Source: Halichondria panicea (Eukaryota; Porifera; Demospongiae; Suberitida; Halichondriidae). Taken from it: DNA of 64,000 nucleotides. The stretch spans positions 2,108,001 through 2,172,000 of the forward strand of contig NC_087382.1 of the NCBI RefSeq assembly GCF_963675165.1. The letters are read 5' to 3'. The position numbers and the translations under genes were made by a program. The notes beneath the pieces were generated by a model, which worked only from the letters and a program-made list of their open reading frames with translations, made no database searches and was not told the DNA's origin. Shown here one piece after another: positions 1-49,444 of this stretch (positions are counted from its first letter, which is position 1; each line of letters begins with the position of its first letter).

Positions 1-2506
1 GGGTAGTTGCTGGGGCATTAGTGACTACACACTCCATGCGATGATTATATTCCTAAACTCCATACCTGCACTATAGCAAGGTAAGCCGCTCCCTCTGCGT
101 ATCGAATGAGTAGACCTCCTCCCAGGTACGAGACCACGTACATGGCAATGAAGGCCACACCCCTCAACCCTGGCACATAGTTACAACCAGCTCCACCAAA
201 GAAACACTGAATAGCAAACCAATAGCTGCAAGAATTGAATAAGAAGAGCAACATATTAAAATTATTATGCTACCCATGCACTAATACATGCATGCAGGAA
301 CCCATAAATAAGCCCATACATTTTTCTATTATTTTATGGGCTCCTGTTAAAAAATACGGACACAAAATTTTTGTTATCTTATAATTTATACTGATATTTC
401 TTTTCTTGCGGCTTACTTTTCCCCAAATGTCTGGATGCTACCAGCAAAGCCATACCACGGCACCACGTCCACCCAGAACAACACACCCACAGAGACAGTT
501 GATACAGGGAAGTCCAGAAGAGAAAGTAGAACAAGTTAACAGTTCTCGTGTCCTTTAAACTCTTCTCTTCAATCACGTTCATAACAGCAGCCGGGACCTA
601 GAGAAGAGTGGAGGCAGTGTGAGTGTACTATGCACATGTAGGGATAGGGTTAGGGTTCACCTAGCCTCGAATTCAGGCCGATTAAAATACGGCCTGGTAC
701 CTATTGCATGTGTAATTAATCATAGGCGTGGTCCATACACGCCCACGTACTATCTACTACCGTATAGCGGGTAATTTTCGTGGGGTAAAATATTCGTTAT
801 TTTCGTGGGCAGGCTGACCTCCACAAAATTTTATCGTAGGCGTGGCTTATCTGAACGTAGGAATGCCGTGCAGCCATGAGACTAAACGAAATTTTTACTC
901 ACGAAAACTACCATTTCTCGAGTTGAACGAATTTTTTACCCCACGAAATTTACCCGCTATATACGGTATGTATATGAAGCTATGTGCCACAGCTAGCCAG
1001 CAAGTCTTCTCGACAACGCAATAGAGAGCATAAACCACAGCTTCACAGGAGACAAGTATTTGTTAAAATTAATACGGAAAGAAACTAGTAAACAAACTAG
1101 TTTACGGTTTAATTTTACAAAGGTTTACTAAAGTATAACAAGTCACCCAGATTCTGGGTGACTCAGTTCGCGCATGTGCACTATCACCCATGCAATAGAG
1201 ACCAGGCCGTATTTTAATCGGCCTGGTCTCGAGGCTAGGGTTCACCTCACTTGCCACTATAGCTACAGTTTACTATGCACATGTACAGTGGGACCACACT
1301 ATAGGCTCTGTACACACTGATGGTCGATTAAGTATAGCATTTAAATCTGCTTTGTGGTGCTTTTAAAATGTGAGTTGAAAAGGGTTGTAATAAAGTATTC
1401 TTTCCAAAATATGATATTTACGGAGTGTATGATTATCTACTTACAAATCCAATCATGAACACTAGGGGCCATATAATCCTGGAGAGAGTTGGTTGAGCAA
1501 AGAACTGAGCGTTTCCACCTTTAGAGTTATCATCAAACTGCGCCACTACTGGTATCAGTGAGAACACCAGAGCAGCCACCACTGCACAAGCACACAGCAG
1601 CTTGAGCAGTGTCGGCCGCTTACGCAGAATGAGAAACCTGTGGACATGGAGAAATGAGTTGCAGTATCCGGTCAGGCATTCATATCATTACTTTGAAAGA
1701 TCCGTTTCATATAAAGTTGCGGCTGTTGCACATTTTCTCCTACTCCCCCTGACTCTTTTAATCAATGCATGGCTTAGTGACTCTTAGGGATATATAAAGC
1801 AATGAATCTATGCATCACAATCTCAGTAATAATAAAGCATGTGCGTGGAGAAATTAGTTGATTCTGCAGGAAATAAATATTGAGGCTAGAGGCATCACTA
1901 TCTCAGTAATAATATTTATTGTTTAAAGTAGTGTGTGAATACACTTGTACTGGCTATACTGGACATGTGACTAGTAATCAGTGGCCCTCACCTGAACAGT
2001 ATGGTGAGTGGGATTGCAGAGTTGGAGAGAATAGCTTGAAGGAAGGGGGCTGTTCGAGTGGGCGGTGAGGCAAACACAACCAGCACTCCATTCAATGCAT
2101 CAAAGAACCCAATGAGCATAAACTGCCACTGGGGAAATAGAAGATCATTTTCAACTGTGATGAAACGAAATCGCCTCTCCTTGCATAATCTGTTGAGTAG
2201 GAACTGGACGGACAAAATCACCAGCAAACAAGTTCCAAATATAATAACAAACGAAATTGAAGCACTGCTCAGAACAAAGTAAGGGTCCATTTCTGGAGGA
2301 CTGGAAGTATTTGAGCTGTTTCCAGTTTCATTGCTGCTCTCAAGTGCTGTGCAGTTAGGATTGGAGAAGGAAGCAGTTGCACTGATCCACAGTGGCAGGC
2401 TGACATTCTGCCCCACTTGTCCAATCACTGCAGCCACTGCAAACACAAGGTTGATGCATACCAACAGGTATCGTGATTCTCGGAGCTTTTCAAGATATTT
2501 GGTCAT
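1..2506 (-). CDS. CRT-like (chloroquine-resistance-transporter family) membrane transporter, 3' end beyond window, frameshifted
   Basis: Exons inferred on the minus strand: 2506-1992, 1637-1445, 597-417 and 225-66, all with GT/AG borders and matching phases. ATG at 2506 starts a hydrophobic segment (YLLVCINLVFAVAAVIGQV), then an Asn-rich loop, a second membrane span and PQWQFMLIGFFDALNGVLVV. The end of exon 1 and exon 2 read IPLTILFR then FLILRKRPTLLKLL. Exon 4 gives CFFGGAGCNYVPGLRGVAF. This order (polytopic, Gln/Asp 'FFDALNG' helix, 'AIPLTIL', Cys-containing loop) is that of the CRT-like drug/metabolite transporter family, whose members sit in digestive-vacuole, lysosomal or plastid membranes. 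The substrate cannot be read here. Exon 3 begins in frame (VPAAVMNVIEEKSLKD) but its second half (VLFWVDVVPWYGFAGSIQTF) is only read two bases out of frame, and only that frame joins exon 4 in phase. A TG insertion near 477-487 would explain it. The last exons lie left of the window. The family call is from remembered pattern, not a search. Confidence 0.68.
662..1237. mobile_element. MITE of the TAGCCTC family, 576 bp, 9-bp target duplication
   Basis: The ends are long inverted repeats starting TAGCCTCGA and running about 50 bases to ...CTATTGCATG. The element is flanked by the exact direct repeat GGGTTCACC (653-661 and 1238-1246). It lies between exons 2 and 3 of the CRT-like gene. It has no open transposase frame, so it is non-autonomous. 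The 9-bp duplication points to a Mutator-like transposase. Another, smaller inverted-repeat element (758-968) is nested inside it. Confidence 0.85.
758..968. mobile_element. Nested MITE with TACCGTATAGCGGGTA ends
   Basis: Inverted repeats TACCGTATAGCGGGTAA (758 onward) and TTACCCGCTATATACGGTA (ending 968) bracket 211 bp. The arms continue inward as AATTTTCGTGGGG and its complement. The element sits inside the larger inverted-repeat element of 662-1237. A longer relative with the same ends is at 49030-49444. Flanks suggest a TA or 2-3 bp target. Confidence 0.7.
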
Positions 2507-3996: not shown

Positions 3997-5004
3997 AGTA
4001 CAAAAAGTTAATTGATAAAATTAATTACAAACAGTTTTACTAATAAATTTACTATTGAATACACCCACTCGCAAACAGTGAATACCAATTGTGAGTCTCA
4101 TCATTCACACGAGTGCCTGTGACAGCACACACACTCTGCGCTGTAGCTACAACACTGTAATAGTGATAGTACGGAAGCCCGTAGGGGCCATTTAATTCCA
4201 CTCTAACATTCCACTCTATAACCCTTTCCTTGCCATTCGTGAAATCTGGAACAGGAGCGTCTTTAGGTCGATCAATTAGTGTGGATCCGGCCTCACCACG
4301 CCTCCATGTCATTCTATTAGTCTAGATCCGGCTAGCAATTCTAGCTGGGACTCCCAGTTCTAGCTCCTTTTGTTTAGCGTGTCAGAGACTGGGAGAAGAT
4401 GATTGGCACTCCCTGGCTCCTTTGGATGTACAGCTGTCCAGATCCCTAGAACATACCCTCCATTCTGACGAGTTATCAGTGCATAGGGTGCTTACTAGAT
4501 TCTTGCCAGCCAGTACAGTTCAAGCTACACACAGCACCGCTCAACTATTCTCTACCCCATTATCTAGCTAAATCTGGTCCAACTAGACAGCAGACACAGC
4601 TAGTTAATTCAGTAAAGCCAGGGGTAGCCCTACTTCTACGGTTGTTCAGTACCCACGGTAACAATTCCTCTGGGCTGGGCTAACTAGTTGAGCCACGCCT
4701 CACAATTCTCAAGGCTAGGTACATGTCTCTGTCTAGCTGCTTCTTCAGCTTCTTGCTCAGTTTTGTGGCTTAGAGAAAGGCCAGCTACTCAGGGGGAAGA
4801 GTCCAGATGAAAGTCTGGCAGCCAGGTGACGTCCAAACGGTCAGTTATTCTTTCCACCAACTTTTTAATCTAGTCTAGTCCTGCTTGCACTGCTACTACT
4901 GCTACTGCTACTCTTCCTACTACTACTGCTGCTACTCTTCCTAGCTAGTCAAAGGTTTCTTTTTTTTTTTTTTTTTTTTTATAACTACATATGCACAAAG
5001 AGAC
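3997..5004. other. Non-coding stretch with simple repeats
   Basis: No exon recognised. 4160-4240 has weakly repeated ATTCCACTCTA motifs related to the satellite at 12,910-13,125. 4880-4945 is a CTACTACTGCTACTGCTACT-type triplet tract. 4960-4980 is a poly-T run of about 20. The last nine bases (CAAAGAGAC) are the left target duplication of the next element. Confidence 0.5.
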
Positions 5005-5773
5005 TAGCCTCGTTCCCAGGCCTTACTTTTTCTTGCTGTTGTCACTGTTCATCCATAAATCACAAGAAAGACATAGTGAGGCAGCAAAGAAAGAAATGGG
5101 CGTACAGTTAAGAAAAAGTAAGGCCTGGTTTGGGAAATCGCGTGATCCACAAGGATTTTTATGAACGTGGGCGATATGTAGCCCACAATCGTGACGTAAG
5201 GTATTCTCCCACGCATTCAGAGTTAATAAAACTGTACTGAGACAACCACCCAAGCTGTGCTGCAAGTCAGATCAGAGAACCAGCGTGGCCAGCTCTGGTG
5301 GCAGTAGCTACCTGCAATATGATAATGATGACTAAGCTATTCTTGATCTATACTAGCATGTAGAAAGACACAAGAAAAGGTAATAGTCTGATAGAATCTG
5401 AACACACAATCTAGACTAGTAGATCATCTAGCTAAGCCTAAGGTATATAGCTAGCTATAGTGCTTGCAAACTTCCAGTTCCAAGTCCATGTCCAGCTTGC
5501 TGCAGGCAAAGTTTTATTAGTCATAGATATCTGCGTGGGCAGTCCAACATCTCTAGCTCAGCATGCCCACGCTCATTTTCACCCTTCTACCGCCCTTCTA
5601 CCCTCACGCGACTTCCCGATACAGGCTCTCCTTTTTCCTAACTCTACGTCTATTTCTTTCTTTATTCCTTCAATTAATACCGTATTTTATCTCATTGAAC
5701 GATTAAGACAGTATTTTATCTTATTGAACGATTGTGATAAAGAACAGAAAAAGGAGAGCCTGTGTAGAGGCTA
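5005..5773. mobile_element. MITE of the TAGCCTC family, 769 bp, 9-bp target duplication
   Basis: The left end reads TAGCCTCGTTCCCAGGCCTT and the right end, complemented, TAGCCTCTACACAGGCTCTC. Both continue into a CTTTTTCT-like tract. The flanks are the exact direct repeat CAAAGAGAC (4996-5004, 5774-5782). Internal inverted copies of the same ends (near 5110-5140 and 5600-5640) suggest it is built of two stacked palindromic units. No transposase frame. Confidence 0.8.
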
Positions 5774-6124
5774 CAAAGAGACATCAAAGCTTACATCAAA
5801 GGACACAGATTTTTAGCCTACTTGACTGATAAGGAGGTTACCTAGACTACAGTTTGTTTGTCAGGGAGGAGCTCACATACAACTTCATCTAATTCATCAT
5901 AACGATTCCTTACCCATTGTTGTAATTTCTACAACAGATTGCCAAGGAAAGAGATAATGCACTTCCACTCTAAAATGCCACTCTAGAATGCATTTCCATT
6001 CTAAAATTCCACTCTAGAATGCACTTCCTCAATGGAAGGGAACGCCCCTGCGCAAAAAATTCAGCCACGTGTGGTTGTTGTTGTTAGCTAGCTAGCCAAA
6101 AGTTGTTGTTGCCTTTATACGTAC
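5774..6124. other. Intergenic region 5' of the kinase gene
   Basis: Holds a short satellite at 5945-6035 with alternating ATTCCACTCTAGAATGCA units, the same family as 12,910-13,125. A GTTGTTGTTGTT tract lies at 6071-6084. No obvious TATA box. Presumably contains the promoter of the kinase gene that starts at 6125. Confidence 0.4.
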
Positions 6125-10902: not shown

Positions 10903-11447
10903 CTAGAAAAACATTTGCAATGTGAAAAATTGCTAGGATTGGCCAGGGGAACCACAAAAAAGCGTGGGAACAAGAAATCAGACGAGAGCATAACTCCAAT
11001 CCGTTACAACGTCAATCACATGTATACTGGTAGTTTTCCCATGTTTTCCCAGCCAATATGCCACGCAATTTTACTGGTGGAGTGATGACCAATCCCTATA
11101 TATATTTATTATACATCCATTTTAGAATGTGGGGCACATAATCATGATGATTTGTGATGAATTGATGTTCCTAATACATGCAGTGTTGAGCACAGGTACA
11201 CACAGTCCATCCATGCGTAGTAACATGCACGGACCGTACTGGTGACTGCATGGAATGATGTGGTGGATGGAAGCTGATAGGTGGATCTGGAACACAGTCT
11301 ATTATTTAATATACTATGTATTGTACATGTTCATGACGTTGTAACGGATTGGAGTTATGCTCTCGTCTGATTTCTTGTTCCCACGCTTTTTTGTGGTTCC
11401 CCTGGCCAATCCTAGCAATTTTTCACATTGCAAATGTTTTTCTAGTC
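10901..11447. mobile_element. Foldback element with 113-bp perfect inverted repeats
   Basis: 10901-11013 and 11335-11447 are exact reverse complements (113 of 113 by eye), with a 321-bp loop. The left arm starts three bases inside the first visible integrase exon, so its end coincides with a splice acceptor. No clear target duplication is visible. It has no coding capacity. It could be a transposed foldback element or a rearrangement-born inverted duplication. Confidence 0.75.
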
Positions 11448-11802
11448 AGATTCCCTTTCTTTTTCAGTACAGTTTACGTATCATGACATGCATAAGTGGA
11501 ACGTCAAGAGGCAGTACAAGAAGAGAAGACAGGACTAATCAGATATCTTCTAGAATATCTCTGGACTAATAATTATAGTATAATGAGTAATAATTTATTG
11601 CTTGATAATTATGTTGAATTTGCGAATCAGTATTAAATGACAGCCATTTTAAGAGCATGATATCTAGCCAGTGCATATAGCATGCCTGTCAGAGAAAGGG
11701 AGCTAGAGCTGAACAGTGTGAAGAAAAGGAACACCTCAGGCTCTGGAAAAGTACTGCTGCACTGATTTTAGGCGCACGGTTTATTAGCCACGCCTATCTA
11801 TT
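11448..11802. other. Non-coding stretch
   Basis: A 70-codon frame crossing from the inverted repeat into this stretch looks accidental. No splice-linked exon of the integrase gene could be recognised. Otherwise AT-rich sequence. Confidence 0.4.
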
Positions 11803-12313
11803 ATTATTGGCCACAACGCAATTGCTGAGTCATTAAAGATGGCGGAATTGTCTAGGTAAGAGAAATAGAGACTGAGAGGTCATCTGCCTTGTGGAAGCAA
11901 TCGCAAATCTGAAGAAGCGCTTTGTAATCCAGGTTGTAGTCGTTTGGAAACCCTGTGCAGAATGTCCTGGAGATGGCTGTACTTGGAGTAAATGCTGGGC
12001 AAGAAACTTACTTACTTACTTACTCACTTACTTACTTACTTACTTAGCCAGTCAGACAAAGAGCGGTGAAACGTTGAAATAGTGCAATTTTTAAAATGAA
12101 AATATTCATTCATTAAAATGTTTATGGATTATGAAATGAGAGATACAAAGAGAGAAAAGGCTAAATAAACTCTATCTGTTCAGCCAGTTTCTTGATGTGC
12201 CCTTTCCCTGCAGAGATAGAACAGTTTGAACATGAGTCAAAATAATTGAAATATTGCTAAACACAGGCAAACCCACTGCCAATCCTATGTAAAACCTACT
12301 GGTTTTACTAATT
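11803..12313. repeat. Dispersed repeat, copy 1 (AAAGATGGCGGAATTG ... ACTT microsatellite)
   Basis: About 500 bp, similar throughout to 15228-15727. Both contain AAAGATGGCGGAATTG, GGTCATCTGCCT, a (ACTT)n tract followed by CAGTCAGACAAA and CGGTGAAA, and both end CAATCCTATGTA(A/C)AACCTACTGGTT. No coding frame is shared. The second copy interrupts a block that is otherwise continuous at 35.9 kb, so the family has been mobile. Confidence 0.65.
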
Positions 12314-16805: not shown

Positions 16806-19417
16806 AAGAAGCCACTGAATGCCTGACAACGCTATTCTATTGGGTGTTGTAATTGCGGTGGTTGTCGTAGGTACTATTGTAATTGCATCTCTAGTAGTGG
16901 CCGCCCTCTGTTATATCTTATACTGGAGGCAGAAAAGAAAGACACAACATCCTGTTTCCACCATTGAAGCCACACCCACTCCCGAGGTCCGCTGCACGGC
17001 ACACACTAACAACAACTGTCGTGCCATTCTTCCACAGAGTAAGTCAACTGCATCATTATATTAATTATAACGTCCGATTTCAAACTGTTTGGTGCTTAGA
17101 TCAGTGATGATTAATATCCCTCCTTTGCTGTGCAAGTGAGAGTATAGGATCACTCATAAAGGCGGCCATGTTTTATGGTGATCCCTTGTCACCACTTGTC
17201 CAACGCTCTATAGCACAACAGACAATGCTAGAGAAGTCCCTGACAAAGGGAGGGTTTAGTAGTCGATATATTGGGCGATGGCGGGAGGACAGAGTGGCTG
17301 TGACCGTGTTCCCTGTCAAGCATCAACACTTTTGGACTAATGAGTCTACCATACTGCAGGTTAGTATAGCAGTCTACCATACTGCAGGTTAGTATAGCAG
17401 TATGAGTCTACCACACTGCAGGTTAGTATAGCAGTGTATAGCTAGCAGCCTGCATGGTTAGGGCATGGAATGCATGGTGATCATAACCATGGTTACAGGT
17501 GCTTTTTACGTATACAGTCTAGAGATTCAGTAGCTATAGGTATATGTAGTTCTTAGAGTGTTTTAGCATAATTACTCGTGAAGATTTATGATGGGTTTGA
17601 AATCCATTGCTTTTGACCAAAGCAGAGGCCCAAATGTGCTAGCTGTTGCCCACCCCTACACTTGCAATCACACACCACCCACACCACACCACCCACACCA
17701 CACCACCTACACACACACGAGCAGCTTCCACTGATGAGACATGACAGTATATTGAGCTTCATTGCTGCAGACACTGTATTCAAGAAATCAGTTAACTACC
17801 TCTACCTCATTAGTGAGTATCACCCCAGGGGCACCCTCAGGGAGCACCTCGTTAAGAGCACACTGGAGATATCAGAGGCTCTGCTGTTGATCAGCTCTCT
17901 TGTGTCTGGAGTGGAGTACTTGCACAGTGTGCTAGCTCAGGAGAGCAGAGGTGGGGTGCAGATGAAGCCATCCATTGCACAAACCAGTCAAAATGTCTAC
18001 GTGGACAAGTCAGGTGATCTATAATTGTAGCTATGTGCATTTTTTGTGCTTGAATATTATCCTTCAAATTCATTATTGGCAAGAGTTTATGATAGAGAGA
18101 GAGTATCGAACGTAGGCATACTGTGTATCAGATGTATGCGGAGAGTAACGTGACTTCCTGTATCTGTCACAAGCTTGGAATTTGCACACTGACCAATCCA
18201 AGCGTGGGTGATGTCATCTATCAAGAAAGTAGATTACATCACCCACACTTGGATGGGTTGATAGATTACATCACCCACGCTTGGATTGGTCAGTGTGCAA
18301 ATTCCAAGCTTGTGACAGATACAGGAAGTCACGTTACTCTCCGCATACATCTGATACACAGTATGCCTACGTTCGATACTCTCTCTCTATCATGAACTCT
18401 TGTTATTGGTGAAGCTATGTGCATTTTATATGCTTATTCATTAATGATCTTTACCCAACACTTTTTTCTTCTCCGTCTTCTGCAGGTTCATGTTGTCTGA
18501 GTGACTTTGCCTTGTCAGTGACTCAGAACGGGTGTGTCAGTGTGTGTGGTCACACTGCCCACTCAGACATGAGATACCGCCCACCAGAAGCATTAGCCGC
18601 TACCACTACTGACGCTGGGTTCGAGGGTTTAAAGAGTGGAGACGTGTACTCCCTCGGACTCATACTCTGGGAGGTGGCCAATTGCTGCCTAGTGCAAGGT
18701 GAGGGAACGCTCTGTGAATATAGGAAAACTGTATCCCACTCTCTCCCCGCTAAAATTACATTTGTGGATTATTTATTGTATTTTGTGCAGGTGAGGACAG
18801 TGTGTACTCTCTACCGTACTCTGACCTCTTGGACTCTGAAGCCACACCTACTAGAGACAATATGATGAGAATAGTTTGTGAGGAGGGAAAGAGACCGCCT
18901 CTACCAGATCAGAGCAATGCTCTAGAGATGAGGTGATCAATTATATTCAGTTCAGATATTTCTGTATATATAGCGTTCGTTTTGGTATAGCTATCTTTGA
19001 GAGCCCGTAATTTATGTTCAGATTGTCCAATGTCAAAACTAAATGACGTATTCAATAGCTCTCAGAATTATCTTTCCAATGGTGTGCTTAGATACAAGTT
19101 CTGTGATTGGTCAATTTAACAAAAGGGAATTTAAGGCTAGCTATTTCTAGAGCTAGAGTTTAGAGCGTTTGATTTAACATTTAACGACATTTCGTTTAGC
19201 TCTATACAATGTCCCCCCACATACTCACGCCCACACACCACAGAACACACGACTGGTTCTGGCCACCATTGACGAGTGCTGGAGCTCCTCTCCCTCGCAA
19301 AGACCAACCACACAACAACTCAAGGAGACACTGCAAACATCGCTATTGCCAGCCATTAAATGGCAAGTATCAGTTGACAAGAATGGACAAACAGTGTATA
19401 AGCAAATGACTTCCTAG
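16806..19417 (+). pseudogene. TGF-beta type I receptor-like gene, decayed duplicate
   Basis: Exons matching the copy at 36.1-39.1 kb: 16806-17038 (membrane span), 17136-17359 (GS/N-lobe), 17725-18013 (catalytic loop region), 18486-18698 (DFA/activation), 18791-18932 and 19244-19417 (C-lobe end, stop TAG). Lesions relative to the other copy: both ectodomain exons absent; one A lost before the membrane span (GAATG against GAAATG), shifting frame; acceptor CAG changed to CAA at 17134-17135; 9 nt deleted across the catalytic loop (KPSIAQTSQN against KPSIEHCNLTSQN); 5 nt inserted in 18791-18932, a further frameshift. A foldback transposon sits in the intron after 18013. The sequence otherwise stays very close to its partner, so decay is recent. 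Transcription cannot be judged. Confidence 0.85.
18080..18402. mobile_element. Foldback MITE in an intron, 7-bp target duplication
   Basis: Ends CAAGAGTTTATGATAGAGAG and its near-complement at the right. The arms pair over about 130 bases around a short centre with GATTACATCACCCAC repeats. It is flanked by TTATTGG (18073-18079 and 18403-18409). The equivalent intron at about 38065 lacks the element, giving a natural empty site. Confidence 0.85.
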
Positions 19418-19822: not shown

Positions 19823-22800
19823 TTACTTTTGCACGACATCGATGACAGTGTGCGTGACTTTGGGTGCATTGTCTTGAGGAAGGGGAGGGGCTGGTCTGTA
19901 GTCCTCTGTGGTGAGGGGGGTTAGTACGTCCAGGGCAGGCTCTCTCAGCTGGTCCGGCGAATGATCAGGGTCAGATTCTTCCATGGCTCCATCAGTGTAT
20001 CTGTCCGCGTTTGTCCAGGTTTCGTTCTCCATTTCGTACTTTTCCAGTTTGCGAACTCGTGGAATCATATTTCTCAGTTTGAGTGCATTTTGCAGAACAG
20101 GAACTGTTTTCAAAATGTACTCGTAACAATGGTAGCAGACTATCACCACAAACAAAATAAAAGCCACTGCCATTGAAATGTTGGATATTATGACTTGACT
20201 CTCATTGATGTTTCCTATGTAGAGGGTGCCATACGCTAGAATTGCAAGATTGAGGAAAAAGAGTGTTTCCAGTAAATCATTGAATCGTATTTTGTACACT
20301 GGATAATTCTGCGATTTGAAAATATTAAGTACAACAGTTATAGATCCAGCTGATAGTACAGGGAGAGAAGTGTCCAAAGCCAAGGCTGTTATTAGGTTAT
20401 GAGCGATCAAAGAAAATAGGAGCAGTCCCACCCAGTAGCGATGCTTGGGAGTGAATGGAGCATGGTATGCATCCATGAAGCCATTGTAGTATGTGTTCTT
20501 AGTCCATTTCATGAGCTTCCATTTTGAACAGCGAGGAAGCCATTGTCCAAACAAAAGCAGTACAGTAAACAATATACCAGAAGTGAGGATTATGGTGGCA
20601 AAAACAAACCGAGGGACGTGACCGGGAGTGAAATATTGCACATTGCCGTCATACAACCAAACAATATCACTTGAATTGTTGGGAAAATCCAATACCTTGG
20701 TTGCACCCTCAGGATAATCCAAGACCCTGTATTGCAGTGCAGCAATGATAAACCGTAAGAGTTTGGAATAAGAGAGTAGGACGAGTGTGCCTAGGGCAGC
20801 AACTGGGTTCCTGTTGGAGAGGAGCTTTGAAAATGAGTCAGAGTACTTGCTTAAAATGATTATTAAGAACATCAAAAGAAACAGGTAAGCAGGAAAGACA
20901 ATCTGAAAGAGCACTTTTGCTTGAGAGTTCATTCTATCATAAAAACATGCCTCAATACCTAAGTCAAGATTCACCCACGATATGAAAACTGTCAAAGGGT
21001 TATGAAAAGGTATGAAAATCGATTGATTTGCAGCTAATATATTAGTGTAGAAGATCAGCCCATGGATAGTGCCTGTTGCTACGGTAATGTTGAAAACAAG
21101 AATGAATGCGACTAGTACTATGCCTGCCAGGGCAAACGGGAGTAGCAGGAGAAGGTAAGTGTTTGAGCAGAGTTCACAACGTGAAGTACCTAACACAAGA
21201 CTGAGTCCTGGTTCACATTCTCCACACAAAACACCACTTCGATTGTGGGCACATTGTTCGTCAGGGTTGCTTAGACTGATGTTGACTGGTTTTAGTACAC
21301 AATAGTCAAATGTACAGTTACTAACAATATACCCACTTCCGTTAGTAGTATTAGTCACTCCTATCCATATGTTGTTATTGCTTTCCAGCTTTATGGTCCC
21401 ATTTTCCTCAGAACAGTTTGTTATCTGATATTCTTGTTGCAAGACTGGATCACAGTCACACTTGCACTCAATTGAGGACATGATTGGCTTGAGTCCAATA
21501 GGGCATTCACACTTTAGAAAAGATATGTTTAGAATTTGTCTTGAAATTCCCAAATTGTTGCATGGACCCTCAGCATAGAGTTCCACTTGAGCAGAGCTGT
21601 CTTGTGAGAATACATTGTACTCTAATTCTGTGCACTGATTGCCAACTTCTTGCTGTGCTTGTCCTTCTTTGAGACGATCAACTCTACTGCTCTCAGTGAT
21701 AACAGAACTGTGAATTATGGCATTATTCATTGGATTTCCAGCTTGGTCTACAGCCATAACACTGATTGTGAATGCTTGTCCTTTTCTAACAGAAATGGTC
21801 TGCTTGGTGGTGTTACACAACTTCACTCTGACAGCCTTTGAAGCTATTGATGAATAATGCACAGTATTGTTCAAGTACTCAAATCCATTGTCTGATGAAG
21901 AGAGTTCGGCTGATACATCCACCGTACACCTGTCCAACAGACCTCCGTAAATATCTGCTCCTGACTGGGAAGCTGTGTTGTTAGTCAAAAAAGTGTTGCG
22001 ATATTTAACTGCACTGTTCAAACACTTAACTTCTTCATTATATCCAGTCATTAATAAAGACAAGAAAGCTTGGATCAAAGGTATCCCATCCTTAATAGAA
22101 TTGTTATCAAAACCATAGAGATCTAGAGTTTGAATGAAGCATTCTGTTTGTGGCAGATCTCCTGCAGTAGTTACATCCTCTCCTCTACACACACCACTCT
22201 CAGTACTGTCTGCCACAAATATCCCCCCTCCATATTGAGCCGTGTTACTGTAGATTTCCAGTATGACCAGCGTTTTACCAATCTCTAGCTCCACGTCCTG
22301 TTTCAGAATATATATCTTAGAACTTTGTCGTAAATAAATTCCACCTCCGCTATTGTTTGCTGAGTTTGACTTGATGTGAACGTGAGCGTGAGAAAAGGCC
22401 TTAATGTTTGAAGCGACTGCATAAATACCTCCTCCATTTTGAGCATCATTTCGATCTATAATACTCACAAACAGTACAGGTTCCATGTCACTACATGTAC
22501 ACAGGACAAACTGATGATTAAATATACAACCAGAGGTGACCTTCGAATCAAATTCAATTTCGCTTGAGTATGCATAAATCCCACCACCATTTTGTGCTTT
22601 GTTATGGGATATCTCTATTGGATAGTGAACAAAGAGTGTACTCTCTCTCAGAAATACACCTCCTCCAAAGGTAGCAGTATTGTTAGAAATGACCACTCCT
22701 TCTGCATTGATATAGATTTGACTCTGGACTGCTCTGATGGCTCCACCCTGCAAACCATGATTGTTACTGAGAGTTGTAGGTCCATTGAACTCCACTCGAC

Positions 22801-24163
22801 TGCTTAGAGCATACACAGGGTTTACATTATTGCTAATGGTGTTAACTCCCGTAAATGACAAGTTAGAATACACTGCGTAAATGATATTTTCACCCTCAAA
22901 ATTGTCAAATATGCTTGTATTAGTAATTATCAAAGTTGAGATCGCAACCGCAATCACTCCATTTTGTTGAGTGGCTCTGTTGTTTGTGAGCACAGAGTCG
23001 GAAATGTTCACAGGCACATCAGCAACAGAAATTACTCCACCAAAATCAGCACTGTTATTTTTAATCATGACTTTGGAGATGGATATAGTTCCAGTCAATA
23101 CCAAAATCGCTCCACCAGCGCTAGTTCCTCCATTACCAACTACAGCTTCATTGTCCGTTATATTACAGCTCAAGATAGATGCATTAACTCTGAAAAGTGC
23201 AATCGCTCCACCAGAGGCTGCCTTGTTGTTTGTTAACTCGCTATCGGATATTAGTAACTCTCCACTCAAAATCGAAATCGCTCCACCTGCTTTTTCAGCA
23301 CTGTTGTATGCTAGCTCACTGTCGGAGATTGAGACACTCCCAAACCAGATATTAATTGCTCCACCAACAATAGCACTATTGTTCAGTAGCGCACAGTTGG
23401 AAATGAACAAATTACTTTTGTAGGTGATAGATCTAATTGCTCCACCTCTTACATTAGCGATATTATTTGTAAAGTTGCTCCAACTGATAGTCACACTTGC
23501 AGAGACCACAAACACTGCTCCCCCCATTGTAGCAGTATTAGAATTGAACTTTGAATCATTAATAACAGTTTGATTTGAGTGAATGTTCACTGCACCACCA
23601 TCGTTACTGAAGAAGTCGCTCTTTTCAATGTACACATTATCAGCTTCAACTATCAATGCTCTGTCAGTGCTAGTGTTGTTCACGAAGAGAACTTGTTCAA
23701 TCGTCACAGTTACCGTACGAGTGATCCAGAGTGTACAAGCTTCCAACTTTAGCAATTTCAAGTCTACCAAATTGCATTGAGAAATGTTCATGTAGCCTGA
23801 ACTACTTTCATCACTTGCTCCAGTGAAATGCAAACCTTCGATACTCAATGCACTGATATTAGATAACTGCACTCTACCAGAATTGTTCAAATTGATAGTG
23901 GCATTTTGGCCAGCAATAGTCACCTCTGTGAAATTACAAATGTAAAGCATTTCACTTAATAAATGATCTCCAGGTAGAAAGCTCAAGGTGAGATTGTCTC
24001 CACCAGATAACAGGGCTGTTTGAACAAGCTGCTCGAGAGTGAAACAAGTTCCATTTTGATAGTCATTACACGAGTCGGTTGAATCCACTGGCACAATGTG
24101 ATAGTGCTCACTCCTGGTAACAGTAGCTAGGGTCAGTAGCAGCACCAACCAGGTACCGTGCAT
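19823..24163 (-). CDS. PMP-like beta-helix, multi-pass membrane protein, copy 1 (intact, 1446 aa)
   Basis: A single long coding exon. Signal peptide MHGTWLVLLLTLATVTRSEH. Residues about 60-700 are right-handed beta-helix coils of about 22-26 residues with repeated GGAI or GGGI turns and FxxN-type motifs (FFSN, FNSN, FTNN), the signature also used by chlamydial PMP proteins, and very many N-glycosylation sites. A Cys-rich stalk follows (about 880-990: CECPIGL, CKCDCDP, GVLCGECEPGL, CELCSN). About eight membrane spans cover residues 1000-1350, with GQWLPRCSKW and HRYWVGLLLF between them. A cytosolic tail of about 80 residues contains PAPPLPQ. The tail lacks a segment (CDP...ITPPII...) present in the paralogues. 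The architecture is that of animal and protist surface proteins of unknown function; adhesion or recognition is a guess. A 5' UTR intron is likely: acceptor CTTATAG ends at 24177, donor at 25032-25027. Start: the first ATG after that acceptor. Confidence 0.9.
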   Translation of the reverse strand: MHGTWLVLLLTLATVTRSEHYHIVPVDSTDSCNDYQNGTCFTLEQLVQTALLSGGDNLTLSFLPGDHLLSEMLYICNFTEVTIAGQNATINLNNSGRVQLSNISALSIEGLHFTGASDESSSGYMNISQCNLVDLKLLKLEACTLWITRTVTVTIEQVLFVNNTSTDRALIVEADNVYIEKSDFFSNDGGAVNIHSNQTVINDSKFNSNTATMGGAVFVVSASVTISWSNFTNNIANVRGGAIRSITYKSNLFISNCALLNNSAIVGGAINIWFGSVSISDSELAYNSAEKAGGAISILSGELLISDSELTNNKAASGGAIALFRVNASILSCNITDNEAVVGNGGTSAGGAILVLTGTISISKVMIKNNSADFGGVISVADVPVNISDSVLTNNRATQQNGVIAVAISTLIITNTSIFDNFEGENIIYAVYSNLSFTGVNTISNNVNPVYALSSRVEFNGPTTLSNNHGLQGGAIRAVQSQIYINAEGVVISNNTATFGGGVFLRESTLFVHYPIEISHNKAQNGGGIYAYSSEIEFDSKVTSGCIFNHQFVLCTCSDMEPVLFVSIIDRNDAQNGGGIYAVASNIKAFSHAHVHIKSNSANNSGGGIYLRQSSKIYILKQDVELEIGKTLVILEIYSNTAQYGGGIFVADSTESGVCRGEDVTTAGDLPQTECFIQTLDLYGFDNNSIKDGIPLIQAFLSLLMTGYNEEVKCLNSAVKYRNTFLTNNTASQSGADIYGGLLDRCTVDVSAELSSSDNGFEYLNNTVHYSSIASKAVRVKLCNTTKQTISVRKGQAFTISVMAVDQAGNPMNNAIIHSSVITESSRVDRLKEGQAQQEVGNQCTELEYNVFSQDSSAQVELYAEGPCNNLGISRQILNISFLKCECPIGLKPIMSSIECKCDCDPVLQQEYQITNCSEENGTIKLESNNNIWIGVTNTTNGSGYIVSNCTFDYCVLKPVNISLSNPDEQCAHNRSGVLCGECEPGLSLVLGTSRCELCSNTYLLLLLPFALAGIVLVAFILVFNITVATGTIHGLIFYTNILAANQSIFIPFHNPLTVFISWVNLDLGIEACFYDRMNSQAKVLFQIVFPAYLFLLMFLIIILSKYSDSFSKLLSNRNPVAALGTLVLLSYSKLLRFIIAALQYRVLDYPEGATKVLDFPNNSSDIVWLYDGNVQYFTPGHVPRFVFATIILTSGILFTVLLLFGQWLPRCSKWKLMKWTKNTYYNGFMDAYHAPFTPKHRYWVGLLLFSLIAHNLITALALDTSLPVLSAGSITVVLNIFKSQNYPVYKIRFNDLLETLFFLNLAILAYGTLYIGNINESQVIISNISMAVAFILFVVIVCYHCYEYILKTVPVLQNALKLRNMIPRVRKLEKYEMENETWTNADRYTDGAMEESDPDHSPDQLREPALDVLTPLTTEDYRPAPPLPQDNAPKVTHTVIDVVQK

Positions 24164-25032
24164 GTTCTCTCCGATACTATAAGATTACAAGCATATTTAA
24201 TTGCAAAACTATAGTACTATTGCTGCTTCTATATTGATATCAAAACTTAAAGCGGGTATATGGAGTAGAATAAGGTATTATGAGACGAAACCAGTTATGA
24301 GACAGCTGCAGGAATGCTTCAGCTATTCCGGCATTTAATTATAGTAATAACACTCCCACTCTATATGTTTCCAAAACAAATTTGGAGTTGGATGCTGTGT
24401 TGACAGAGATACCACAATAGTTTGTTTAAGTCCAGAATTTAATTGGAAAAAACATAGGTGCCAAATGTTTTGTAGTAGGTATCTGTTAAAACAAGAGTAA
24501 CTAATCGCTACACAGCAAAAATACATCTGTTATATGAGATGCATCATCGGAATTTAGTGTTAAAATGACAGAAATTTATGTCATTTCTACATGAAATTTC
24601 AAAAGATGCGTTTTATTAATTTATGTTACTGTAAACGAATGTGTTTTTACTGTGTATATTTTATATAAGAAGGCTTCAGATATATGCTGTTAGCCTATAG
24701 CCAATTAGCGTTAAAATTAGCAATGATGTCTCATAATACCCAAACCACTTTGAACACTAAATGCTAGCATTAGTTGCAAACAAAGTACTGTCACTATTTT
24801 TTTACTTACATGCAAAGCCTATTGACCATAGTAGTTAGTGAACAGGCTATTTAGCTCCCTCAAGATTACTGCAAGACATGCAGGGGGTCAGACACATTTA
24901 GATGTTTCATAATACCCTCTTACACCCTATACTATAGTTGTCTATAGATCTAGACACGTGGAACAAGATAATAGTCACCAGCAATATTTAATTGATAAGG
25001 CTCAATTACACAAGTTTGCAGTGTTAACTTAC
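24164..25032 (-). other. Probable 5' UTR intron and leader of beta-helix copy 1
   Basis: 13 nt of leader (24164-24176), then an intron whose acceptor (CTTATAG) and donor (GTAAGT, 25027-25032) are conserved at 54478-55347 upstream of copy 3. About 870 bp, AT-rich, with no coding signal. A GTGTGAGACTGTG-containing exon would lie just above 25033. Confidence 0.5.
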
Positions 25033-25130: not shown

Positions 25131-25478
25131 AGGTAGGACTATATAGACCTATAGGTGTCTTCCACAGGCCATGCAGACAGTTTATAAACTGTACTATAGC
25201 TAGAAATTGCAAATAGCTGTAAAAATACCTTCTATGGATAACATTACTGCGTTTACTCATTCATTCGCAGAATTCGAAGAATTTTTGGGCCGCAGAAATT
25301 TCTCAAGGGCGTATAAAAGAAGAGAAGGCATGCAACAGCAAAAGAGTAGAGTTCAAACATGGGCGGATGAATGTGCATTGAATGTGCATGAAATGTTAAA
25401 AATAGAAATTTCTATTTTTAGCACTCATGCAAATTCCTACGTTCATCCGCCCACGTTTGAACTCTGCTAGCTACGTGT

Positions 25479-25530
25479 TAGCCTCGAGACCAGGCCGATT
25501 AAAATTTTAATCGGCCTGGTCTCGAGGCTA
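25479..25530. mobile_element. Minimal palindromic transposon, 52 bp, 9-bp target duplication
   Basis: A perfect 52-bp palindrome made only of two 26-bp TAGCCTCGAGACCAGGCCGA-type ends back to back. It is flanked by the exact direct repeat GCTACGTGT (25470-25478, 25531-25539). There is no internal sequence. Same family as 662-1237, 5005-5773 and 34447-34497. Confidence 0.85.
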
Positions 25531-25539
25531 GCTACGTGT

Positions 25540-33101: not shown

Positions 33102-33582
33102 TTACTGTTTCACGACATCGATGACAGTGTGCGTGACTTTGGGTGCATTGTCAGCTGTAGCTTGAGGAGGGGGAGGGACTGGTCTGTAGTCCTCTGTGGT
33201 GAGGGGGGCTAGTACGTCCAGGGCAGGCTTTTTCAGCTGGTCTGGCCTCGTGGCAGTTCGGATGATGGGAGGAGTGATGTAACGATCAGGGTCATCTTCT
33301 TCCATGGCTCCGTCAGTGTACGGATCACATCTGTCCGCGTTTGTCCAGGTTTCATTGTCCATTTCGTGCCTTTCCAGTTTGCAAACTCGTGGAATCCTTT
33401 TTCTCAGTTTGAGTGAGTTTTGCAGAACAGGAACTTTCTTCAACATGTACTCGTAACAATGGTAGCAAACTATCACCACAAACAAAATAAAAGCCACTGC
33501 CATTGAAATGTTTGATATTATGTCTTGATTCCCATTGATGCTTCCTATGTAGAGGGTACCATACGCTAGAATTGCAAGATTT
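33102..33582 (-). pseudogene. 3' fragment of a beta-helix membrane protein gene
   Basis: An open frame for the last two membrane spans and the cytosolic tail (NLAILAYGTLYIGS ... SMAVAFILFVVIVCYHCYEY ... THTVIDVVKQ, stop at 33102). Very like copy 4. Homology stops abruptly at 33582 in a poly-T tract. The upstream ectodomain is missing, so it is a truncated duplicate. Confidence 0.9.
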
Positions 33583-33714
33583 TTTTTCTCTACATCTAAG
33601 TCAACAGAGCTCCCAGGGGGGTCACCAGTTAGTATGTGGGGGGGGCAGGGGGATTTGGTGGGAGGTGTAATTCTACAATATTAGCATAAACTACACATTC
33701 CATGCAATGATAAC

Positions 33715-34296: not shown

Positions 34297-34866
34297 TGTA
34301 AACCCTTAAAACGAGATGCTACAAATATCATACTGCTTTTTGGGATCAAAAACATCTAAATTCTAATAATTGACAATTCAACACATTTGTGGCAGGGGAA
34401 ACTTTTGCATGATTTATAAACAATTTCCGTATAGCATGTATATATTTAGCCTCGATTCCAGGCCGATTTAATTTTAATCGGCCTTGAATCGAGGCTAGTA
34501 TATATTAATTTTAAAAAACTTTTTTCTAATAAGTTAAATGTTGCACACAGCGAGAGAGTTAGCTAAAAGTCTATTTGCGTTGAGATCGACCCCGGAAGTT
34601 ATTATGCTTTATTTGGTGGACAAGTATGCCTGGGACTTCTACGTGGAAAATGCTAACTTTTAGCTGGTTGGAGCTTACTAGCTCTACAGCATATAGATAG
34701 AAGCGCTTTTTAACAAGGAATCCAATGGTAGATCTATATGAAACTTTGAATTTCAGTAAAGCATGACAAAGTTATGACAACTTTATGAAAGTCAAACTCG
34801 ACACAAATAGACTTGTAGTCCATCATAATTATAGTCAGGTTGTGCTATAGTTCTGCACAGAGGCTG
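34297..34866. other. Non-coding stretch with one minimal palindromic element
   Basis: AT-rich. The only clear feature is the 51-bp palindromic insertion at 34447-34497. Confidence 0.4.
34447..34497. mobile_element. Minimal palindromic transposon, 51 bp, 9-bp target duplication
   Basis: TAGCCTCGATTCCAGGCCGA and a near-perfect inverted partner meet at TTTAATTTTAA. Exact flanking repeat GTATATATT (34438-34446, 34498-34506). Second pure-ends member of the family. Confidence 0.85.
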
Positions 34867-39600: not shown

Positions 39601-42600
39601 TTACTCTTTCACGACATCGATGACAGTGTGCGTGACTTCGAGTGTATTGTTTTGAGGAGGGGGAGGGGCTGGTCTGTAGTCCTCTGTGGTGAGGGGGGTT
39701 AGTACGTCCAGGGCAGGCTCTCTCAGCTGGTCTGGCCTCGTGGCAGGTCGGATGATGGGAGGAGTGATGTAACGATCAGGGTCATCTTCTTCCATGGCTC
39801 CGTCAGTGTACGGATCACATCTGTCCGCGTTTGTTCAGGTTTCTTTGTTCTCCATTTCGTACCTTTCCAGTTTGCGAACTCGTGGAATCCTTTTTCTCAG
39901 TTTGAGTGAGTTTTGCAGAACAGGAACTTTCTTCAACATGTACTCGTAACAATGGTAGCAAACTATCACCACAAACAAAATAAAAGCCACTGCCATTGAA
40001 ATGTTGGATATTATGACTTGACTCTCATTGATGTTTCCTATGTAGAGGGTGCCATACGCTAGAATTGCAAGATTGAGGAAAAAGAGTGTTTCCAGTAAAT
40101 CATTGAATCGTATTTTGTACACTGGATAATTCTGCGATTTGAAAACAATCAGTCCAACAGTTATAGATCCAGCTGATAGTACAGGGAGAGAAGTGTCCAA
40201 AGCCAAGGCTGTTATTAGATTATGAGCAATCAAAGAAAATAGGAGCAGTCCCACCCAGTAGCGATGCTTGGGAGTGAATGGAGCATGGTATGCATCCATG
40301 AAACCAATGTAGTATGTGTTCTTAGTCCATTTCGTGAGTTTCCATTTTGAACAGCGAGGAAGCCATTGTCCAAAGAAGAGCAGTACAGTGAACAATATAC
40401 CAGAAATGAGGATTATGGCGGCAAAAATAAACCGAGGGACATGACCGGGAGTGAAATATTGCACATTGCCGTCATACAACCAAACTATATCACTTGAATT
40501 GTTGGGAAAATCCAATACCTTGGTTGCACCATCAGGATAATCCAAGACCCTGTATTGCAGTGCAGCAATGATAAACCGTAAGAGTTTGGAATAAGAGAGT
40601 AGGACGAGTGTGCCTAGGGCAGCAACTGGGTTCCTGTTGGAGAGGAGCTTTGCAAATGAGTCAAAGTACTTGCTTAAAATGATTATTAAGAACATCAGAA
40701 GAAACAGGTAAGCGGGAAAGACAATCTGAAGGAGCACTTTTGCTTGAGAGTTCATTCTATCATAAAAGCATGTCTCAATACCTAAGTCAAGATTCACCCA
40801 CGATATGAAAACTGTCAAAGGGTTATGAAAAGGTACGAAAATCGACTGATTTGCAGCTAATACATTAGTGTAGAAGATCAGCCCATGGATAGTGCCTGTT
40901 GCTACGGTAATGTTGAAAACGAGAATGAATGCGACTAGTACTATGCCTGCCAGGGCAAACGGGAGTAGCAGGAGAAGGTAAGTGTTTGAGCAGAGTTCAC
41001 ATCGTGAAGTACCTAACACAAGACTCAGTCCTGGTTCACATTCTCCACACAAGACACCACTTCGATTGTGGGCACATTGTTCGTCAGGGTTGCTTAGACT
41101 GATGTTGACTGGTTTTAGTACACAATAGTCAAATGTACAGTTACTAACAACATACCCACTTCCGTTAGTAGTATTAGTCACTCCTATCCATATGTTGTTA
41201 TTGCTTTCCAATTTTATGGTCCCATTTTCCTCAGAGCAGTTTGTTATCTGATATTCTTGTTGCAAGACTGGATCACAGTCACACTTGCACTCAATTGAGG
41301 ACATGATTGGCCTGAGTCCAATAGGGCATTCACACTTTAGAAAAGATATGTTTAGAATTTGTCTTGAAATTCCCAAATTGTTGCATGGACCATCAGCATA
41401 GAGTTCCACTTGAGCAGAGCTGTCTTGTGAGAATACATTATACTCTAATTCTGTGCACTGATTGCCAACTTCTTGCTGTGCTTGTCCTTCTTTAAGACGA
41501 TCAACTCTACTGCTCTCAGTGATAACAGAACTGTGAATTATGGCATTATTCATTGGATTTCCAGCTTGGTCTACAGCCATAACACTTATTGTGAATGCTT
41601 GTCCTTTTCTAACAGAAATGGTCTGCTTGGTGGTGTTACACAACTTCACTCTGACAGCCTTTGAAGCTATCCATGAATAATGCACAGTATTGTTCAAGTA
41701 CTCAAATCCATTGTCTGATGAAGAGAGTTCGGCTGATACATCCACCGTACACCTGTCCAAAAGACCTCCGTAAATATCTGCTCCTGACTGGGAAGCTGTG
41801 TTGTTTGTCAAAAAAGTGTTGCGATGATTAATTGATGTACTGTTCAAACACTTAACTTCTTCTTCATATGAATTAGACTGGGAAGATTTGACAAAAGGTA
41901 TCAAAGTCTCAACAAAATTGATATCAAAACCATAGAGATCTAGAGTTTGAATGAAGCATTCTGTTTGTGTCAGATCTCCTGCAGTAGTTACATCCTCTCC
42001 TCTACACACACCACTCTCAGTACTGTCTGCCACAAATATCCCCCCTCCATATTGAGCCGTGTTATTGTGGATTTCTAGTATGACTAGCATTTTACCAATC
42101 TCTAGCTCCAAGTCCTGTTTCAAAATATAGATCTTGGAACTTTGTTGTAGATACACTCCACCTCCGCTATTGTTTACTGAGTTTGACTTGATTTGGACGT
42201 GAGCGTGAGAAAAAGCCTTAATGTTTGAAGCGACTGCATAAATACCTCCTCCATTTTGAGCATCATTTCGATCTATAATACTCACAAACAGTACAGGTTC
42301 TATGTCACTACATGTACACAGGACAAAGTTATTATTAAATATACAACCAGTAGTGACCTTCGAATCAAATTCAATTTCGCTTGAGTATGCATAAATCCCA
42401 CCACCATTTTGTGCTGTGTTGTGAGAAATCTCTATTGGATAGTGAACAAAGAGTGTGCTCTCTCTCAGAAACACACCTCCTCCAACAGTAGCAGTATTGT
42501 TAGAAATGACCACTCCTTCTGCATTGATATAGACTTGACTCTGGATTGCTCTGATGGCTCCACCCTGCACACCACGGTTGTTACTGAGAGTTGTGGGTCC

Positions 42601-44469: not shown

Positions 44470-44502
44470 GTTCTCTCTGATACTATATAAGATTACAAGC
44501 AT

Positions 44503-45095
44503 ATTAATTATGCATTGCAGTATCAGTATTGCTGCTTCTATAGTTTGTACTTAAAGCGTGTACTGTCTAAAGCATCTTATATAATAGGTAGAACATGTGG
44601 AATAAGCTAATTAATGGTCATCAGAGTTTATGAAACATTCATTACTAATTATTGATGAGGCTCAAATTCTTTAATATCAGAATTGTTTATTACACAAGAC
44701 AATCTTAGTTTGCACAGTGTTCACACAGTTAATGGATATAGAGATGCACACAGAAGTTCCCCGGCCATGTACAATGCATGTTCTAGGTAACCCTGCTTCC
44801 CAGAAAAGGGGAAGTTCGTGGTTAAGTTTTACATCATAAGGATCTACATACACTGCATGTGTGTGAGGCTGTGTTTGATTTTTGAAATGGCGCATTTTCC
44901 ACATGCATGCAACCATGCTCATGATTATATAGCCACTCTTGGATATTAGAAAACAAAAACATTTCTGAATTTATGAAACAGCAGATCACTGAAAGTACGA
45001 GTGCCTCCTCTCATTAGTATTGGCTCGATACGTAATTATGAGAGGCCCAACATAATCATACTGGAATATAGCGCCGGCTTTGTACCCACATGCAA
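44503..45095. other. Upstream region of beta-helix copy 2
   Basis: AT-rich. A piece at 44725-44745 (CAGTTAATGGATATA) matches the leader-exon block upstream of copies 1 and 3, but the GTAAGT donor is missing. 44770-44830 repeats CCCTGCTTCCCAGAAA...GGGAAGTT, found also near 34080 and 57640. No gene. Confidence 0.4.
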
Positions 45096-49029: not shown

Positions 49030-49444
49030 TACCGTATAGCGGGTATATTTCGAGGGTATAAATGTTCGCAGTTTTCGCGGATTGAGCCTGTACCGCGAAA
49101 ATTTATATTTATTGCAGTATTATTGACCACACCTATCGACAATAAAAAAAGAATCAAGAGACAAGGACGCCGGTATAGCCAGCTAGCTTGCTCTACGTCT
49201 ACTGTATCCCTTGACCATGGCCTGCACAGCAAACGTTCTGCTGGTGGAGGACATAGTGCATCACCGATTCTATACAGGCTATAGGCCTGGATTCGAGGCT
49301 AACGGTGTGGAGGTACAGTTGCATGTTGATGTGCGCATGCGCCAAAAGGCTGGAACTCAGACCACAAAAATAAAATCCGCGAAATCCTTTGTAGTGGTCC
49401 ATCCGCGAAAATTTATATCCTCGAAATATATCCGCTATACGGTA
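49030..49444. mobile_element. MITE with TACCGTATAGCGGGTA ends, 415 bp
   Basis: Left TACCGTATAGCGGGTATATT, right CGCTATACGGTA. Direct GTA flanks. Inner arms repeat TTTCGAGG...TTTCGCGGA. It contains AGGCCTGGATTCGAGGCTA (near 49281-49299), one end of the TAGCCTC family, perhaps a nested remnant. It lies between relic E and beta-helix copy 3. Confidence 0.75.

What the first reader, a model, noticed from the sequence alone, without database searches (positions are those of the whole stretch)
25470..25539. A transposon reduced to nothing but its ends: perfect 52-bp palindrome with a 9-bp target duplication
TAGCCTCGAGACCAGGCCGA arms meet head-on with no internal sequence, flanked by exact GCTACGTGT repeats. 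The same family appears at 34447-34497 (51 bp, GTATATATT repeats), 662-1237 (GGGTTCACC) and 5005-5773 (CAAAGAGAC). Four out of four show an exact 9-bp duplication. Known: 9 bp is typical of Mutator-like transposases. Mobilisation of a 51-52 bp palindrome would be among the smallest DNA transposons.
Basis: partly seen in the sequence, partly recalled or inferred. Interest (0 to 1): 0.85.

Follow-up and report, generated by a model that had tools for sequence, protein, structure and literature searches.

The report
Tiny palindromic transposons, ends only
This genome holds DNA-transposon derivatives of only 19-66 bases at over a thousand places, essentially two transposon ends glued head to head, and one 58-base form may have spread as a transposon in its own right, which would make it among the smallest known.

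Summary
The 52-nt palindrome at 25479-25530 with GCTACGTGT on both sides is real, as are the other three sites; of the two short ones only this is perfectly palindromic. Genome-wide (131.5 Mb), TAGCCTCG...CGAGGCTA pairs occur at 1007 places at 36-66 nt and 106 at 19-35 nt (reversed controls 0). Many are passengers of larger repeats. Of 65 deduplicated insertions, 43 have 9-nt flanking repeats matching at 8-9 positions (33 exact, none longer than 9); re-paired flanks give 0.09%. Empty paralogous sites exist. These are nonautonomous cut-and-paste elements with longer relatives (about 570, 770, 1088 nt).

Mobile as such? Short forms arose by joining the two ends; many are probably decay products (down to 25 nt). 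One form, a 58-nt double end, is abundant (181 core matches). Of 15 sites sampled, 13 carry a duplication, all flanks differ, and 13 share the same unlike arm pair. A related 1088-nt family gives only 10 scattered palindromes. Against: the same junction occurs in two subfamilies, and 47-mers are about as common in one sample. I put mobility of the 58-mer at about 0.5. The 52-mer may be a centre-deleted 58-mer. The transposase was not identified.

The parts
25479..25530 (.). 52-nt perfect palindrome: two 26-nt transposon ends head to head
   Evidence: read; identical to own reverse complement
25470..25478 (+). left 9-nt target duplication GCTACGTGT
25531..25539 (+). right 9-nt target duplication GCTACGTGT
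34447..34497 (.). 51-nt near-palindrome, arms of the second subfamily (ATTCCAGG / ATTCAAGG)
34438..34446 (+). left target duplication GTATATATT
34498..34506 (+). right target duplication GTATATATT
662..1237 (.). family A long member, 576 nt; its right end holds CCAGGCC-GATTAAAATAC-GGCCTGG (left end one base different); likely parent type of the 52- and 58-mers
   Evidence: relative at L010:2167-2728
653..661 (+). left target duplication GGGTTCACC
1238..1246 (+). right target duplication GGGTTCACC
5005..5773 (.). family B member, 769 nt, same tip (TAGCCTC), different subterminal sequence
   Evidence: relative at L001:699-1468
4996..5004 (+). left target duplication CAAAGAGAC
5774..5782 (+). right target duplication CAAAGAGAC
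49284..49301 (-). lone right-hand end GGCCTGGATTCGAGGCTA; no partner with a matching duplication within 2500 nt
11669..11819 (+). empty site: 98% identical to the joined flanks of L086 (34-nt element, target GCTCTGGAA present once)
11143..11276 (-). empty site matching the joined flanks of L063 and L091 (31-nt element, target GGATGGACT)
   Evidence: 87%

Best explanation
A family of nonautonomous cut-and-paste DNA transposons, with end repeats starting TAGCCTCG and a 9-nt target duplication, has amplified in this 131-Mb genome. Shown: members from 19 to 1088 nt share the same outer end, most of those sampled are bounded by 9-nt duplications, and some have empty paralogous sites. Shown by their sequence: short members join the two end repeats with little or nothing between. 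Inferred (about 0.5): in family A one such product, a 58-nt double end (29 + 29 nt, joined at ATAC|GTAT), kept both ends that the transposase needs and spread as a transposon by itself. Inferred: most other lengths (19-57 nt, including the 52-mer of the finding) are in-place deletions of the 58-mer or of long copies, which keep the original duplication. Inferred and untested: the near-perfect palindrome could bring its two ends together by extruding a cruciform, since 58 bp is very short for an ordinary loop; the transposase comes from an autonomous relative not identified here.
For: Counts: 1007 places at 36-66 nt, 106 at 19-35 nt, reversed controls 0. Duplication: 43 of 65 deduplicated insertions at 8-9 of 9, null 0.00085; 33 of 33 exact repeats are exactly 9 long. 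58-mer: 181 core matches at 3 mismatches or fewer, 34 exact on 16 contigs, not deduplicated. In 15 sampled sites 13 have duplications at 8-9 of 9, all 15 flanks differ, and 13 of 15 have the same AAT/AGA arm pair. Spectrum of family A palindromes (a pattern that cannot see 47-mers): 22 of the 50 listed (of 113) are 58 nt, the next length 7; not deduplicated, 11-nt arms assumed. Exact 58-nt cores (34) outnumber exact 47-mers (14), although the 47-nt join has a 12-nt repeat and the 58-nt join 2 nt. Control family C: 629 end repeats but only 10 palindromes, matched stretches of 34-50 nt, at most two of one length. Empty sites. Folding: the 52-mer and 58-mer are strong hairpins, z -13.1 and -12.3.
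Against: The 58-nt junction occurs with arms of two long subfamilies (AAT/AGA and ATTCC/ATTCAA), so it arose at least twice or is a deletion hot spot. Long family A copies carry the same AAT/AGA arms, so recurrent deletion would give the same 58-mer. In the first 50 places I count 5 independent 47-mers and 4 independent 58/59-mers, so the 58-mer is not dominant there. Derived arm variants of 58-mers (CAAGG, CTAGG) also occur in long copies. Family C may simply be younger, and its ends were counted with a looser pattern than family A's. The 25-nt form, which keeps only 8 nt of one end, also recurs at 6 loci with different duplications (L061, L075, L089, L098-L100), so recurrence alone may come from decay. 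One of 4 58/59-mers of the first sample (L050) and 2 of 15 of the second lack a duplication at 8-9 of 9.
Confidence: 0.5

Rival explanations
1. Decay only: long copies insert with a 9-nt duplication, and their inverted ends are later deleted in place by replication slippage or end joining at microhomologies or hairpins. No short form ever moves; the 58-mer is a deletion hot spot.
For: Microhomology joins of the two family A ends include 36, 44, 46, 47, 52, 54 and 58 nt, all observed; weak, because 21 of the 48 lengths from 19 to 66 have some join with 2 nt or more, and observed 48, 50 and 51 nt are not among them. Remnants that lack most of one end keep their duplication (25 nt and others; 19 nt in L013 and L038). 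Same 58-nt junction in two subfamilies. 47-mers, the best-homology product, are as common as 58/59-mers in the list (5 and 4 events).
Against: Genome-wide exact 58-nt cores outnumber exact 47-mers 34 to 14. Family C, with long perfect end repeats, hardly shows symmetric palindromes.
Confidence: 0.42
2. Foldback-type copying: during gap repair after excision the polymerase switches template at the end repeat and closes the gap with a head-to-head end, making palindromes at the donor site. This is a variety of the decay reading and overlaps with it.
For: Would give short palindromes with the original duplication kept; consistent with the symmetric centres. L080 shows a short element at the centre of inverted flanks, which is what snap-back copying would make.
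Against: Snap-back on one arm would make both arms identical, but 13 of 15 sampled 58-mers have unlike arms AAT/AGA; switching between both arms would still work.
Confidence: 0.15
3. Not transposons: chance or structural palindromes such as protein sites or satellite units.
For: Many places (for example the 50-nt form on C1) are passengers of larger repeats: 110 sites reduce to 65 events.
Against: 9-nt duplications far above re-paired flanks; empty sites; reversed control 0.
Confidence: 0.01

Closest known systems
MITEs in general, especially of Mutator-like (MULE) elements
   Same: Short, noncoding, inverted ends, duplication of fixed length, many copies, longer relatives in the same genome
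   Different: 19-66 nt with no internal sequence; typical MITEs of about 100-600 nt are recalled, not from a call. No transposase linked
Muta1 of Aedes aegypti and its nonautonomous derivatives (PMC5225508, passages seen)
   Same: 8-9 nt duplications; complex, foldback-like ends with a terminal palindromic motif; many end-truncated derivatives
   Different: Muta1 ends are 145 nt with tandem subterminal repeats; most derivatives there contain variable internal sequence
Tm1 Mutator/Foldback family of root-knot nematodes (PMC3169594, passages seen)
   Same: Mostly 9-nt duplications (8-10 nt in 45 of 53 elements), composite foldback ends, MITE-like members
   Different: MITE-like members there are described as typically under 0.5 kb; ends built of tandem repeats
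Paramecium internal eliminated sequences (PMC3464196, passages seen)
   Same: Transposon remnants shrunk to 26-28 nt that a transposase-like protein still excises
   Different: Excised in development, very likely by the domesticated PiggyMac; that paper cites 64-70 bp as the minimal in vivo value for bacterial cut-and-paste transposons
REPINs, bacterial (PMC3116915, title and start of abstract in the listing)
   Same: Called miniature mobile DNA by their authors; tiny palindromic repeats (recalled)
   Different: Bacterial; use of a Y1-type transposase without duplication is recalled, not from a call

Membership tests
Cut-and-paste (DDE-type) DNA transposon derivative | Fixed-length target duplication | tested here: met
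   9 nt; 43 of 65 events at 8-9 of 9, 33 exact
Cut-and-paste (DDE-type) DNA transposon derivative | Empty sites with one copy of the target | tested here: met
   L086 against window 11669-11819 at 98%; L063/L091, L099 and L048 against the window at 77-87%
MITE | Noncoding, inverted ends, many copies, shares ends with longer elements | tested here: met
   no open frame over 104 aa overlaps the one family C copy examined
Mutator-like (MULE) superfamily | 8-10 nt duplication | tested here: met
   9 nt; range as stated in PMC5225508
Mutator-like (MULE) superfamily | Element with the same ends encodes a MULE transposase | tested here: inconclusive
   31 PF10551 hits; none within 15 kb of 193 of the 307 matched family A ends; end lists incomplete, introns may hide domains
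Mutator-like (MULE) superfamily | Typically long end repeats, over 100 nt | tested here: not met
   49 nt in the family A copy L010, about 86 nt in the family C copy L009 (read); typical, not universal: mentions two MULE families with ends under 60 nt
hAT or P superfamily | 8-nt duplication (recalled) | tested here: not met
   33 of 33 exact repeats are 9 nt
KDZ superfamily | Element with the same ends encodes a KDZ transposase | tested here: inconclusive
   53 PF18758 hits; compared by eye, none lies between listed ends of families A or C
Independently mobile 58-nt element | Excision or insertion observed, or a polymorphic empty/58-nt site | not testable with these tools
   one assembly, no reads

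The most novel reading that the evidence does not exclude
A 58-nt palindrome made only of two 29-nt ends is a fully mobile eukaryotic cut-and-paste transposon, spread to well over a hundred places, with end pairing helped by its cruciform rather than by DNA looping; possibly even the 25-nt form moves.
Probability: 0.45. Interest if true: 0.8.

Novelty: new variant of a known kind. Interest (0 to 1): 0.56.

Why it matters
If a 58-nt double end moves by itself, two transposon ends can be synapsed in a eukaryote at a spacing below the 64-70 bp cited as the minimum for bacterial cut-and-paste transposons, and annotation that skips such short repeats misses a size class of mobile DNA. Even under decay alone, the 106 places with pairs of 19-35 nt, most of the sampled ones still marked by their duplication, are a natural record of how inverted repeats are deleted.

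Tried and rejected
Linking the family to a transposase: PF10551 and PF18758 have 31 and 53 hits, but none sits between the ends I could list. A 5,635-nt pair of exact family C ends (C1:7506402-7512036) is the best autonomous candidate; 400 nt from its middle (L148) look to me like small exons with repeats (SKIVGV-type peptides, introns GTTAGT...TTTCCAG); I ran no domain search on it.

Deciding mobility by derived arm variants: CAAGG and CTAGG both also occur in long copies (99 ends, 3 of them CTAGG), so no decision.

Literature: in the listings I saw no title or abstract start that reports this family or a eukaryotic transposon this small; one search returned only unrelated papers and none. 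Seen otherwise: passages of PMC5225508, PMC3169594, PMC3464196, PMC4726161 and PMC9942856; outline and abstract of PMC3422177; the first of four parts of PMC2872659; no match in PMC12595863 for size terms. The library lacks most subscription journals, so novelty in print is not established.

The window-wide inverted-repeat scan was dominated by a GT microsatellite.

Mended on checking: a draft said that 47-mers are ten times rarer than 58-mers; that compared an exact count with a 3-mismatch count. The like-for-like figures are 14 and 34, and 5 and 4 events in the list, so I lowered mobility of the 58-mer from 0.6 to 0.5 and raised decay from 0.35 to 0.42.

Full report
What is there. The window is G000:C6:2108001-2172000 of an unnamed 131.5-Mb genome in 39 contigs. 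The 52-mer at 25479-25530 is a perfect palindrome. The 51-mer at 34447-34497 is not quite. 662-1237 and 5005-5773 are longer members of two related families (A and B).

Genome-wide. TAGCCTCGN{20,50}CGAGGCTA occurs at 1007 places and N{0,19} at 106; the pattern read backwards occurs 0 times. These are places, not insertions. A 50-nt form alone accounts for 17 of the 50 places listed, in near-identical flanks on C1 between 1.28 and 2.38 Mb. I read 30-nt flanks at 110 sites and grouped them by flank similarity (70%) into 65 events. These sites come from the places listed first in the searches, mostly on contigs C1-C6, so they are not a random sample.

Target duplications. Of the 65 events 43 match at 8 or 9 of 9 positions in register (33 exact), and 52 of 65 if a slip of 0-2 nt is allowed. 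Randomly re-paired flanks give 0.09% and 0.34%. All 33 exact repeats are exactly 9 nt long. The 13 events below 8 of 9 even with slip are L004 (7 of 9), L010, L042, L050, L057, L062, L065, L080, L082, L087, L088, L090 and L106; they are counted in the 65. Sizes with a duplication in register run from 25 to 65 nt. Twenty further sites were read with 10-nt flanks: 17 match at 8-9 of 9, one at 7, one at 4, one at 0; two of the 17 share the same flanks. Joined flanks find empty paralogous sites, for example L086 (34 nt) against window 11669-11819 at 98% with a single GCTCTGGAA, and L099 (25 nt) against four window stretches at 77-79%, three of them inside long open frames.

Relatives. Family A: 208 exact 36-nt ends for the CCAGG variants, some of which are the far sides of 47-mers (14 genome-wide), and 99 ends for the CAAGG/CTAGG variants. 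Among 193 typed of these 307 ends I find 32 facing pairs: 23 are 496-607 nt long, one 360, one 862, and seven between 1,543 and 3,525. Family C: 629 ends at up to 3 mismatches; one element read in full has 1088 nt (L009), and most facing pairs in the listed 100 rows fit about that length. Families B (769 and 770 nt) and D (216-245 nt) are small samples. No open frame over 104 aa overlaps the one family C copy examined.

Origin of the short forms. By their sequence they are the two ends joined. Microhomology joins of the two family A ends include 32, 36, 40, 44, 46, 47, 52, 54, 58 and 62 nt among others; observed family A sizes include 36, 44, 46, 47, 52, 54 and 58, but also 48, 50 and 51, which the model did not list. 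The fit is weak evidence, because 21 of 48 possible lengths have some join of 2 nt or more. In-place decay is very likely: a 19-nt remnant with exact CATTGGAAC repeats lies inside family D, and 25-nt forms with only 8 nt of one end left occur at 6 loci, 5 with exact in-register duplications and one with a 1-nt slip.

Is any short form mobile? The 52-mer: 8 places at up to 3 mismatches, 6 independent loci, 3 with exact and 2 with 8/9 duplications, 1 without. It can equally be a 58-mer that lost ACGTAT from its centre. The 58-mer stands out in number: 181 cores at up to 3 mismatches, 34 exact on 16 contigs, not deduplicated. I sampled flanks at 15 (11 exact cores, 4 with one centre change): 13 of 15 have duplications at 8-9 of 9, one 7 of 9, one 0 of 9; no two share flanks; 13 of 15 have the same unlike arms AAT and AGA. 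Two more, with a CTAGG arm, have GTGATGACT exactly, and 7 of 9. In the first sample four independent 58/59-mers match at 9, 9, 8 and 3 of 9. In the list of strict family A palindromes 22 of 50 are 58 nt and no other length exceeds 7; this pattern cannot see 47-mers and pairs of places may be duplicates. Exact 47-mers number 14 against 34 exact 58-nt cores, although the 47-nt join has the longest repeat (12 nt against 2). Family C, with longer perfect ends, gives 10 symmetric palindromes (matched stretches 34-50 nt, at most two of one length) against 629 ends. I read this as one successful short lineage plus a background of decay, at even odds.

Against that reading. The 58-nt junction exists with the arms of both family A subfamilies, long copies carry the same arms, and derived variants are shared with long copies. 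In the list 47-mers (5 events) are as common as 58/59-mers (4 events). Family C may be younger, and the end counts of A and C used patterns of different strictness. A hot spot for this one deletion cannot be excluded; I give decay alone about 0.42. The odds were changed on checking, because a draft had compared an exact count with a 3-mismatch count.

Mechanism. The 9-nt duplication says staggered insertion of the kind DDE-type transposases make (established knowledge). Both hairpins are very stable as single strands, so a cruciform could place the two ends side by side; this is inference. The transposase is unknown. Mutator-like is the best guess from duplication length and foldback-like ends, not a finding. 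The closest published parallels seen, in passages, are Muta1, Tm1 and the shrunken Paramecium elements.

Noticed in passing
window 19823-24184, 33102-33680, 39835-44550, 50012-54498: Cluster of long paralogous open frames on the minus strand (repeat-rich N-part, apparently membrane C-part); a 25-nt element sits in a related sequence elsewhere (L099).
   Followed up: partly
L013 (4980-5266) and L012 (1501 onward): Two elements back to back sharing one copy of the target repeat between them (L013: TTCTAGAGT three times; L012: second element's far side not read). L047 is followed after its duplication by a 14-nt remnant of another end.
   Followed up: no
L080 (C2:5182657-5182691): A 35-nt element at the centre of inverted flanks, while the same form at L083 has a normal duplication; looks like a snap-back inverted duplication.
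   Followed up: no
G000:C1:7506402-7512036: Exact family C ends 5.6 kb apart; the middle looks like repeated small exons. Candidate autonomous or gene-carrying element.
   Followed up: partly
genome-wide: KDZ-type transposase pieces, apparently split by introns; six hits have identical scores, which suggests recent copies.
   Followed up: no
window 18069-18413 and 10897-11451: Two other large inverted repeats (156-nt arms 33 nt apart; 128-nt arms 299 nt apart).
   Followed up: no
G000:C1 about 1.28-2.38 Mb: A larger repeat carrying the 50-nt element at 17 listed places, inflating the raw count.
   Followed up: partly
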